Shown in pieces: positions 56,635-58,512 of a stretch of 64,000 nucleotides of DNA; within the stretch, counting starts at the first letter, position 1; every line of letters starts with the position of its first letter. The notes beneath the pieces were generated by a model, which worked only from the letters and a program-made list of their open reading frames with translations, ran no database searches and was not told the DNA's origin. The position numbers and the translations under genes are program-made. This DNA comes from Agathobacter ruminis (lineage in GTDB: Bacteria > Bacillota > Clostridia > Lachnospirales > Lachnospiraceae). Where the stretch lies: the NCBI RefSeq assembly GCF_002735305.1, contig NZ_PDYG01000030.1, forward strand, positions 1 to 64,000. Reading direction: 5' to 3'.

Positions 56635-56663
56635 TAGACAGACTTTGAAAATAAAAGTATAAT
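56635..56663 (+). promoter_or_regulatory. Promoter of the NifU-like/GGGtGRT operon
   Basis: TAGACA (56635-56640), a 17 bp spacer, TATAAT (56658-56663). Flanking it, ACAGACT (56638-56644) and AGTCTGT (56669-56675) form an inverted repeat around the -10. Confidence 0.75.
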
Positions 56664-56714
56664 AACCACAGTCTGTTAAAAAGATAACAACATAATATCG
56701 AAAGGAGTCTTAAC

Positions 56715-57416
56715 ATGATTTACACAAAAGAAGTTGAGAACATGTGCCCAATTGCTAAGGGTGCAAAGCATGAGCCTGCTCCTATTCCTGAAGAAGGAAA
56801 GTGGGTCCACGCAAAGAAGATTGAGGATATCTCCGGTTTTACACATGGTGTAGGCTGGTGTGCACCACAGCAGGGTGCCTGCAAGCTTTCCCTCAATGTA
56901 AAGAACGGAGTTATTGAAGAAGCTCTCGTTGAGACAATCGGATGTTCCGGAATGACACATTCTGCAGCTATGGCAGCAGAAATCCTTCAGGGAAAGACCA
57001 TTCTCGAGGCTTTGAATACAGACCTTGTATGTGATGCAATCAATACTGCTATGAGAGAGTTATTCTTACAGATCGTTTACGGTCGTACACAGTCTGCTTT
57101 CTCCGATGACGGACTTGCAGTCGGTGCAGGACTTGAAGATTTAGGAAAGGGACTTCGTTCTCAGGTTGGTACCATGTATGCAACCAAGGAGAAGGGTGTT
57201 CGTTACCTTGAAATGGCAGAAGGTTATGTAACCGGTATCGCACTTGACAAAGATAATGAAGTAATTGGATATCAGTTCGTTTCTCTTGGAAAGATGACTG
57301 ACTTTATCAAGAAGGGTGATGATGCGAACACAGCATGGGAAAAGGCTTCCGGATCATACGGTCGCGTAACTCCTGAGCAGGGTGCAGTAAAGATCATTGA
57401 CCCTCGTGTAGAGTAA
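56715..57416 (+). CDS. NifU/IscU-like iron-sulfur scaffold protein
   Basis: 233 residues. The middle (about 47-125) follows the IscU/NifU N-domain: GACKLSLNVKNGVIEEALVE, then IGCSGMTHSAAMAAEILQGK and a third cysteine in LVCDAI. Cysteines are C11, C49, C56, C77 and C106; C56, C77 and C106 correspond to IscU ligands. The first 45 and last 100 residues are extensions not found in ordinary IscU. No cysteine desulfurase is adjacent, unlike isc or suf operons; the partner is the GGGtGRT gene 21 bases downstream. Strong GAAAGGAG site and strongly biased codons suggest high expression. Fe-S scaffold function is inferred. Confidence 0.85.
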   Translation: MIYTKEVENMCPIAKGAKHEPAPIPEEGKWVHAKKIEDISGFTHGVGWCAPQQGACKLSLNVKNGVIEEALVETIGCSGMTHSAAMAAEILQGKTILEALNTDLVCDAINTAMRELFLQIVYGRTQSAFSDDGLAVGAGLEDLGKGLRSQVGTMYATKEKGVRYLEMAEGYVTGIALDKDNEVIGYQFVSLGKMTDFIKKGDDANTAWEKASGSYGRVTPEQGAVKIIDPRVE

Positions 57417-57437
57417 TCAGGAAAGGAGAGACATAAA

Positions 57438-58448
57438 ATGGCATTATTTGAATCATACGAAAGAAGAATCGACCAGATCAACGCTGTATTAAACAGCTAT
57501 GGCATCGCTTCCATCGAAGAAGCAGAAAAGATCACAAAAGACGCTGGTCTTGATGTATATGAGCAGGTTAAGAAAATTCAGCCAATCTGCTTTGAAAATG
57601 CTTGCTGGGCATACACTGTAGGTGCAGCAATCGCAATCAAAAAGGGATGCAGAAGAGCAGCAGATGCTGCAGCTGCAATCGGTGAGGGACTTCAGTCCTT
57701 CTGTATTCCGGGTTCTGTAGCAGACCATCGTAAGGTAGGTCTTGGACATGGTAACCTTGGAAAGATGTTATTGGAAGAAGAGACAGAATGCTTCTGCTTC
57801 CTTGCAGGACATGAGTCTTTCGCAGCAGCTGAAGGTGCAATCGGTATTGCCGAGAAGGCAAACAAGGTTCGCCAGAAGCCTCTTCGCGTTATCTTAAACG
57901 GACTTGGAAAAGATGCTGCTCAGATTATTTCCCGTATCAACGGATTTACTTATGTTGAGACCAAATATGATTATAAGACAGCAGAATTAAATGTAATCTA
58001 TGAGAAGCCATACTCTGACGGACTTCGTGCAACCGTTAAGTGCTACGGTGCTGATGATGTTCAGGAAGGTGTAGCAATCATGCACAAGGAGAATGTTGGC
58101 GTTTCCATTACCGGTAACTCAACAAACCCAACACGTTTCCAGCATCCTGTAGCAGGAACTTACAAGAAGGAATGCAACGAGCAGGGCAAGAAATACTTCT
58201 CTGTAGCTTCCGGTGGTGGTACAGGACGTACCCTTCATCCGGACAACATGGCAGCAGGTCCGGCTTCTTACGGTATGACCGATACCATGGGACGTATGCA
58301 CTCTGATGCACAGTTCGCAGGATCTTCATCTGTTCCGGCTCACGTAGAAATGATGGGATTGATCGGAATGGGTAACAACCCAATGGTTGGAGCAACTGTA
58401 GCTGTAGCCGTTTCGGTTGAAGAAGCTGCTAAGGCAGGCAAGTTCTAA
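57438..58448 (+). CDS. GGGtGRT family protein
   Basis: 336 residues of the family named for its glycine-rich motif, here GGGTGRT at 259-265. No biochemical function is known to me. Visible features: an N-terminal helical part with C51 and C56, C71, C89, a CFC pair (C118, C120), SVADHRKVGLGHGNLGKMLL (93-112), and conserved SGGGTGRTLHPDNMAAGPASYG. It is cytoplasmic, with no signal or membrane segment. The ATG follows AGGAAAGGAGAG. Operon with the NifU-like gene suggests it receives or helps build an Fe-S or other metal cofactor. Codon use is highly biased. Confidence 0.88.
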   Translation: MALFESYERRIDQINAVLNSYGIASIEEAEKITKDAGLDVYEQVKKIQPICFENACWAYTVGAAIAIKKGCRRAADAAAAIGEGLQSFCIPGSVADHRKVGLGHGNLGKMLLEEETECFCFLAGHESFAAAEGAIGIAEKANKVRQKPLRVILNGLGKDAAQIISRINGFTYVETKYDYKTAELNVIYEKPYSDGLRATVKCYGADDVQEGVAIMHKENVGVSITGNSTNPTRFQHPVAGTYKKECNEQGKKYFSVASGGGTGRTLHPDNMAAGPASYGMTDTMGRMHSDAQFAGSSSVPAHVEMMGLIGMGNNPMVGATVAVAVSVEEAAKAGKF

Positions 58449-58464
58449 GACTTTTTGAAGTCAG

Positions 58465-58512
58465 AGGAGGATTTTTTCGTGGCAGGTACACGAAAAAATT
58501 CTCCTTTTTTTG
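58465..58512 (+). terminator. Long terminator after the GGGtGRT gene
   Basis: A 17 bp near-perfect stem (AGGAGGATTTTTTCGTG against CACGAAAAAATTCTCCT, one mismatch), a 7-base loop and a T tract. It closes the operon and isolates codY. Confidence 0.92.

What the first reader, a model, noticed from the sequence alone, without database searches (positions are those of the whole stretch)
56635..58512. NifU-like scaffold and GGGtGRT protein in an insulated, strongly expressed operon
The sequence shows a strong promoter, two genes 21 bases apart and a long terminator. The first protein keeps three IscU-type cysteines (C56, C77, C106) but has extensions and no desulfurase neighbour. The second belongs to the GGGtGRT family, which I know only by name, and has many cysteines (C51, C56, C71, C89, C118, C120). 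Codon use in both is far more biased than in nearby genes, as in abundant proteins. I infer a dedicated cofactor-insertion pair: an IscU-like donor for one client enzyme of unknown reaction.
Basis: partly seen in the sequence, partly recalled or inferred. Interest (0 to 1): 0.75.

Follow-up and report, generated by a model that had tools for sequence, protein, structure and literature searches.

The report
Obligate NifU-like and GGGtGRT gene pair
Two neighbouring genes of many gut anaerobes were found together in the genomes searched and look very strongly expressed; published iron and fluoride data suggest that they make an unrecognised iron-dependent enzyme which may stand in for enolase, a classic enzyme of sugar breakdown, but nobody has tested this at the bench.

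Summary
The two-gene operon is real: NifU-like protein 56715-57416, GGGtGRT protein 57438-58448, codon use like ribosomal proteins. The families form an obligate pair: same 19 of 299 genomes, same 66 of 145, 124 of 150 with mismatches at contig ends. GGGtGRT has no invariant Cys in 126 sequences; in the NifU-like protein C49, C77, C106 are invariant, only C77 aligning with an IscU ligand. I favour a two-subunit iron enzyme, cluster on the IscU-like subunit, over scaffold plus client; most likely an iron-dependent stand-in for enolase. Clues: low iron represses the pair while enolase (C. pasteurianum) or operons with gpmA and eno (B. thetaiotaomicron) rise; two sister loci have the pair in fluoride-riboswitch/CrcB operons; divergent second pairs lie near LeuC-like and PrpF-like genes; Oscillibacter valericigenes reportedly lacks enolase yet ferments glucose (its genome was not searched for the pair). 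No structure was obtained; no activity is known. Enzyme pair about 0.55; enolase about 0.35.

The parts
56635..56663 (+). sigma-70-type promoter-like site TAGACA-17-TATAAT
   Evidence: 11 of 12 matches; in the 22 relatives printed the best promoter-like sites lie at various distances and are mostly weaker
56700..56707 (+). Shine-Dalgarno sequence GAAAGGAG of the NifU-like gene
   Evidence: sequence; GAAAGGAG also stands before the start in 18 of the 22 relatives printed
56715..57416 (+). NifU-like protein, 233 aa; IscU-like core within about residues 50-105, invariant C49, C77, C106; C-terminal extension of about 120 aa without a credible database match
57420..57428 (+). Shine-Dalgarno-like sequence GGAAAGGAG of the GGGtGRT gene
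   Evidence: sequence
57438..58448 (+). GGGtGRT protein (PF14057), 336 aa; 140 positions at least 99% invariant in 126 sequences, no invariant Cys
58463..58507 (+). intrinsic terminator, 19-pair stem, 7-nt loop, T-run

Best explanation
The two genes encode the two subunits of one iron-dependent enzyme. The NifU-like subunit is an IscU-fold protein whose invariant C49/C77/C106 hold an iron-sulfur cluster with an open site, as three cysteines do in aconitase-type hydro-lyases (recalled); the GGGtGRT subunit supplies the substrate site and is the catalytic body. It works as a hydro-lyase on a phosphorylated or carboxylated hydroxy acid, most likely as the iron-dependent counterpart of Mg-enolase in lower glycolysis (2-phosphoglycerate to phosphoenolpyruvate, possibly together with the mutase step), made when iron is plentiful and replaced by ordinary enolase and phosphoglycerate mutase when iron is short. 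Shown here: obligate pairing, codon bias, conservation pattern. From published tables: iron response in two species. Inferred: shared enzyme, fold of the subunit beyond its core, cluster, reaction.
For: Obligate pairing: same 19 of 299, same 66 of 145, 124 of 150 with 3 contig-end cases. Co-duplication: the two whole second copies found (G190, G368) each have their own NifU-like gene; further extra matches are fragments at contig ends. Iron: C. pasteurianum GGGtGRT 7.1x and NifU-like 2.4-3.7x higher in excess iron (early phase), enolase 4.1-4.8x higher in limitation (PMC5395762, section 11 read); B. thetaiotaomicron BT0173-74 down 11-12.8x, BT1658-60 with gpmA up 15.4-23.9x, BT4570-72 with eno up 2.0-7.7x in low iron (PMC10434189, passages). 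Chicken caecum: Bacteroidetes express GGGtGRT and NifU, with low or no phosphoglycerate mutase and enolase (PMC11204068, passages). Fluoride riboswitch and CrcB around the pair in L196 and L197; fluoride operons carry enolase (PMC5533749, PMC11139923, passages). Second pairs lie with LeuC-like and PrpF-like genes in two genomes. O. valericigenes ferments glucose but no enolase gene was found (PMC3558957, passage); a Subdoligranulum record of the same NCBI family has the pair. Codon ranks 5 and 17 of 1033, with a pyruvate phosphate dikinase-like ORF at 3.
Against: No structure, activity or metal data. C. pasteurianum and B. thetaiotaomicron have ordinary enolase, so the pair is not the only route there. 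The P value printed for the eno line in B. thetaiotaomicron is 0.144 and eno's own fold is not given. Mutase changes with enolase, which replacing enolase alone does not explain. The fluoride operons are two sister loci; 56000-59000 of the window has no riboswitch. GGGtGRT matched no enolase or hydratase model. The authors of PMC11204068 read their data as diversion to serine and say that all Bacteroidetes expressed most glycolytic enzymes. Oscillibacter was not searched for the pair; enolase was not met in the 42% of the own genome sampled, so its codon use is unknown.
Confidence: 0.4

Rival explanations
1. Dedicated scaffold and client: the NifU-like protein assembles or delivers a cluster to GGGtGRT, a metalloenzyme of unknown reaction.
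For: IscU-like core with the C77 position kept; pairing; a separate NifS/IscU run in the same genome could supply sulfur; in Collinsella a suf cluster with SufS and SufU lies about 2 kb upstream of the pair.
Against: GGGtGRT has no invariant cysteine, though other ligands are possible; the IscU hallmarks CGD and LPPxKxHCS are missing; both proteins look similarly abundant by codon use.
Confidence: 0.2
2. Two-subunit iron enzyme as above, but with another reaction: another hydro-lyase or isomerase, a phosphoglycerate mutase substitute, or a fluoride-sensitive enzyme that fluoride operons over-produce.
For: Second pairs beside LeuC-like and PrpF-like genes; the gpmA operon changes more than the eno operon in low iron; a fluoride operon carries extra copies of fluoride-inhibited enzymes.
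Against: Does not explain the reported lack of enolase in O. valericigenes or the rise of enolase in low iron.
Confidence: 0.25
3. Iron or iron-sulfur store or carrier made in bulk when iron is plentiful.
For: Codon bias and iron response.
Against: 140 of 336 GGGtGRT positions are at least 99% invariant, including many Gly, Asp, Asn, Arg, His and Ser, more like an active site; link to hydratase-like and fluoride operons.
Confidence: 0.07
4. Ordinary housekeeping pair with no relation to lower glycolysis; the enolase, fluoride and hydratase links are coincidence.
For: Each link rests on few species; strong fluoride-riboswitch hits occur at 2 loci among the 145 sources searched, which overlap in part.
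Against: Several separate lines point the same way.
Confidence: 0.08

Closest known systems
IscU / NifU N-terminal scaffold (PF01592, TIGR03419)
   Same: Residues 56-102 align with IscU 37-84 (hhalign probability 95.7, E 8.4e-9), including the C77 ligand position
   Different: No CGD loop, no LPPxKxHCS motif, invariant C49 outside the aligned core, a C-terminal extension, no desulfurase among the immediate neighbours; 26.9 bits against a cut-off of 187.9
GGGtGRT family (PF14057)
   Same: Full-length match, 651 bits
   Different: Nothing: it is a member. No function, no solved structure and no credible relative in Pfam or NCBIfam was found for the family
Enolase (Mg-dependent)
   Same: Proposed reaction; reciprocal iron response in C. 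pasteurianum; both occur in fluoride operons
   Different: No enolase model matched; iron-linked; two genes
Aconitase/LeuCD-type [4Fe-4S] hydro-lyases
   Same: Three invariant cysteines (the three-cysteine cluster of the known enzymes is recalled); a second pair lies in gene runs with such enzymes
   Different: No such model matched; the cysteines lie on an IscU-like protein

Membership tests
IscU/NifU scaffold | Match above the curated NCBIfam cut-off (TIGR03419, TIGR01999, TIGR01994) | tested here: not met
   26.9, 23.2, 20.6 bits against 187.9, 192.4, 92.5
IscU/NifU scaffold | Pfam NifU_N domain | tested here: met
   23.1 bits, cut-off 22; 38 of 38 members of A4 match at E up to 1
IscU/NifU scaffold | Three ligand cysteines at IscU positions (C33, C59, C103 in the own-genome IscU) | tested here: not met
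   only C77 aligns (to C59); C56 aligns with M37; the C103 stretch is outside the local alignment
IscU/NifU scaffold | Asp two residues after the first Cys (C-G-D) and LPPxKxHCS | tested here: not met
   C33, G34, D35 and L96, P97, K100, H102, C103, S104 are kept in at least 95% of 31 IscU; not seen in the 38 NifU-like proteins
IscU/NifU scaffold | Cysteine desulfurase partner nearby | tested here: inconclusive
   immediate neighbours in the window are other genes; no family search for desulfurases was made around the pair; Collinsella has suf genes about 2 kb upstream; recurrent neighbours of 85 loci were not all identified
GGGtGRT (PF14057) | Profile match over the cut-off, full length | tested here: met
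   651 bits, positions 1-327 of 327
Enolase | Enolase sequence signature | tested here: not met
   no enolase model hit
Enolase | 2-phosphoglycerate dehydratase activity | not testable with these tools
   needs a bench assay
Three-cysteine [4Fe-4S] hydro-lyase | Three invariant Cys and a bound 4Fe-4S cluster | tested here: inconclusive
   three Cys invariant in 126 of 126; cluster not testable here
Fluoride-riboswitch regulon | RF01734 aptamer upstream | tested here: inconclusive
   met in L196 and L197, not in window 56000-59000

The most novel reading that the evidence does not exclude
The pair is a second, non-homologous enolase: an iron-sulfur, probably fluoride-tolerant enzyme in which an IscU-fold protein has become a cluster-bearing subunit. 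It would carry the main carbon flux of many gut and rumen anaerobes when iron is plentiful, and would explain organisms reported to ferment glucose without enolase.
Probability: 0.35. Interest if true: 0.96.

Novelty: categorically new. Interest (0 to 1): 0.84.

Why it matters
Proteins of these names are reported among abundant gut and rumen proteins (passages of PMC6043501, PMC7035244, PMC11204068) but have no assigned function that I found. If the reading holds, one of the best-known glycolytic steps has a second, iron-dependent solution; it would explain a reported enolase gap, tie central carbon flux of gut anaerobes to iron supply, and change how fluoride acts on them. Even if the reaction is another one, the obligate pair is a defined target whose function can be tested directly.

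Tried and rejected
GGGtGRT as a cysteine-ligated Fe-S protein: rejected, no invariant Cys. Distant relative in Pseudomonadota (L134, E 2.9e-4): the ORF there looks like a homoserine dehydrogenase (by eye), taken as chance. Soluble guanylyl cyclase hit (E 0.026 and 0.11) and single-member transketolase hit (E 0.00023): taken as chance. Internal repeats or homology between the two proteins: none found. A conserved operator upstream: none seen; the inverted repeat near the -10 of the window was not seen in the 22 relatives printed. A recurrent third gene: apart from antisense shadow ORFs, families found in at least 5 of 85 loci were in at most 25 loci; not all were identified. Fluoride riboswitch in most relatives: not found; apart from L020/L197 and L196 only weak hits (L112 28.0 bits, L007 23.5, the rest 17.0 or less; built from three sequences, L112 and L007 not checked with Rfam). 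Enolase codon use in the own genome: enolase not met in the 1.20 Mb sampled, by motifs recalled from memory. Co-fold and fold search: nothing learned.

Full report
What is there. The window holds a two-gene operon: a NifU-like protein of 233 aa (56715-57416) and a GGGtGRT protein of 336 aa (57438-58448), 21 bases apart. A promoter-like site (11 of 12 matches) precedes it and a 19-pair terminator follows (z -5.86, 0 of 200 shuffles). Upstream lie a topoisomerase-like ORF (52040-55945, named by eye) and a hexapeptide-repeat gene; downstream is codY. No Rfam family reaches its gathering score in 56000-59000.

Expression. With ribosomal-operon ORFs of the same genome as reference, CAI is 0.843 (GGGtGRT) and 0.812 (NifU-like), ranks 1 and 2 of 55 window ORFs, median 0.603. 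In a larger sample of 1.20 Mb (42% of the genome, 1033 ORFs of at least 100 aa, spurious ORFs included, stricter reference) they score 0.826 and 0.779, ranks 5 and 17, among ribosomal proteins, factors and other abundant proteins, with a pyruvate phosphate dikinase-like ORF at rank 3 (named by motif or by eye). Published proteomes agree in name: 'NifU' has 1.72 and 1.47 in two columns and 0.28 in the third of a top-protein table of rumen samples, a text in which the word enolase does not occur (PMC6043501, passages; which NifU family is meant is not stated); GGGtGRT is called highly expressed in chicken caecum (PMC11204068, passages); both names occur among rumen proteins (PMC7035244, passages).

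An obligate pair. In 299 genomes of the phylum sample, PF14057 is in 19 and a NifU-like profile (A2) is in the same 19; all 20 pairs are adjacent, NifU-like first, gap 3-97 bases. In the phylum sample around Victivallis both are in the same 66 of 145 genomes, adjacent in 66 of 66. In the own family each is in 125 of 150 genomes, both in 124, adjacent in 123; the exceptions G336, G379 and G325 are genes cut by contig ends. The own genome counts in both the first and the third sample. In a Pseudomonadota sample PF14057 passes the cut-off in 6 of 249 genomes, all 6 paired; the NifU-like profile was not searched there. Of the 80 named-genome loci kept from 582 relatives of a capped scan, 78 show a whole or partial NifU-like ORF upstream; L054 and L067 begin 222 and 46 bases before GGGtGRT. 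Pairwise distances of the two proteins correlate at 0.85 over 44 pairs, and a Succinivibrio pair groups with Bacillota rows in both trees, though several forks are weak. Searches used a profile made from paired genes, so a very divergent lone NifU-like protein could have been missed.

What conservation says. The set is 126 full-length pairs (window plus 125 loci; L128 and L143 repeat the genes of L093 and L102; loci with partial genes were dropped). In GGGtGRT 140 of 336 positions are at least 99% invariant, but no cysteine is. In the NifU-like protein C49, C77 and C106 are invariant; C56 is kept in 121 and is Ala in Vibrio L109 and in L130-L133. Against 31 canonical IscU proteins the local profile alignment covers residues 56-102 (probability 95.7, E 8.4e-9); C77 falls on the IscU ligand C59, C56 falls on M37, and the IscU motifs CGD and LPPxKxHCS have no counterpart. 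The same genome keeps an ordinary NifS-IscU run elsewhere. The NifU-like protein is thus a divergent IscU relative with a rearranged ligand set, not a standard scaffold. GGGtGRT matched no other Pfam, NCBIfam or PDB sequence credibly.

Iron. In Clostridium pasteurianum GGGtGRT (F502_05012) is 7.1-fold and the NifU-related protein with the neighbouring locus tag (F502_05017) 2.4-3.7-fold higher with excess iron in early phase, whereas enolase is 4.1-4.8-fold higher under iron limitation; GapA shifts only 1.6-fold, and the other way (PMC5395762, section 11 read). In Bacteroides thetaiotaomicron, low iron lowers BT0173-74 (GGGtGRT, NifU) 11-12.8-fold and raises BT1658-60 (with gpmA) 15.4-23.9-fold and BT4570-72 (with eno) 2.0-7.7-fold, the last with a printed P of 0.144 (PMC10434189, passages). 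In the chicken caecum Bacteroidetes that express GGGtGRT and NifU show low or no phosphoglycerate mutase and enolase, yet high PEP carboxykinase; the authors infer diversion to serine and state that all Bacteroidetes expressed most glycolytic enzymes (PMC11204068, passages and section 7). I read this as an iron-sparing exchange of isofunctional enzymes, like ferredoxin and flavodoxin. None of these papers proposes it in the parts seen.

Fluoride. In L197 an Rfam fluoride riboswitch (8563-8625, minus, 58.5 bits) stands directly before the NifU-like gene (7835-8533), followed by GGGtGRT and two CrcB-like genes; in L196 a riboswitch (10046-10107, minus, 46.5 bits) precedes a TauE-type permease, the pair and two CrcB genes (three of the four CrcB ORFs were scanned, L197 5935-6309 is named by eye). 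The two GGGtGRT proteins are sisters in that tree, while the NifU-like tree does not resolve them, so this may be one event. Fluoride-riboswitch operons are known to carry enolase and pyrophosphatase, targets of fluoride (PMC5533749 and PMC11139923, passages). This fits either a fluoride-tolerant substitute for enolase or a further fluoride-sensitive enzyme.

Hydro-lyase context. Two genomes carry a divergent second pair. In G368 it follows PrpF-like, LeuC-like and LeuD-like genes within a run that also has CaiB-type CoA-transferase, HMG-CoA-lyase-like and acylating aldehyde dehydrogenase-like genes; in G190 it lies near LeuC-like and PrpF-like genes (several of these matches are below the curated equivalog cut-offs, so only the family level is meant). 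A link to water-eliminating enzymes of hydroxy acids recurs.

A genome without enolase. [quoted passage not shown] A Subdoligranulum variabile record of the same NCBI family has the pair. Whether Oscillibacter has it I could not test.

Synthesis. Shown here: a strict, co-duplicated, very codon-biased pair with the conservation described. Taken from papers: iron response in two phyla. Inferred: one enzyme with a cluster on the IscU-like subunit (about 0.55), hydro-lyase chemistry, and enolase as the reaction (about 0.35; the stated reading as a whole 0.4, because it admits a wider lower-glycolysis role). The weakest points are the lack of any structure or activity, the presence of ordinary enolase in the two species with iron data, the joint change of mutase, and the small number of fluoride loci.

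Comparison with print. Searches for GGGtGRT, PF14057 (by title the hits are Plasmodium or unrelated papers, not opened), BT0173/BT0174, NifU-related domain, nitrogen-fixing protein NifU, fluoride riboswitch with NifU, BT4572/BT1660/BT1658 and six enolase phrases showed no functional study of the pair in the held library, which lacks most subscription papers and all preprints. Novelty is rated for the system: an orphan protein family with an obligate, rearranged IscU-like partner. The families themselves are already named in databases.

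Noticed in passing
L194 7058-11688 and L195 5738-10487: Divergent second copy of the pair in gene runs with PrpF-like and LeuC-like genes (LeuD-like in L194); substrate unknown.
   Followed up: partly
L197 5515-5576 (minus): A second fluoride riboswitch downstream of the pair/CrcB operon, before an unidentified gene.
   Followed up: no
L112 5216-5282; L007 1437-1497: Weak hits (28.0 and 23.5 bits) of my fluoride-riboswitch model; not checked with Rfam.
   Followed up: no
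L110 7800-7991: In Parabacteroides a small annotated ORF of about 63 aa lies between the two genes.
   Followed up: no
L111 1-3361: In Collinsella a suf cluster (SufB, SufD, SufS, SufU) and a transposase lie upstream of the pair.
   Followed up: no
L103-L108 and phage hits H11-H16: The pair or part of it occurs on contigs catalogued as viral, often near a contig edge; probably host flank of prophages or miscalled host DNA.
   Followed up: no
plasmid records OY725823, OY725990, OY725939, OY725868, OY725717: Records labelled plasmids of gut isolates carry this pair (and suf genes in Collinsella) and may be chromosome fragments.
   Followed up: no
window 58598-59371 and 59564 onward: codY directly downstream of the terminator, then ORFs that look by eye like flagellar genes.
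   Followed up: no
window 52040-55945: A topoisomerase-like ORF upstream; an ORF family that looks alike occurs upstream in 17 of 85 loci, and another, unidentified upstream family in 25 of 85.
   Followed up: no
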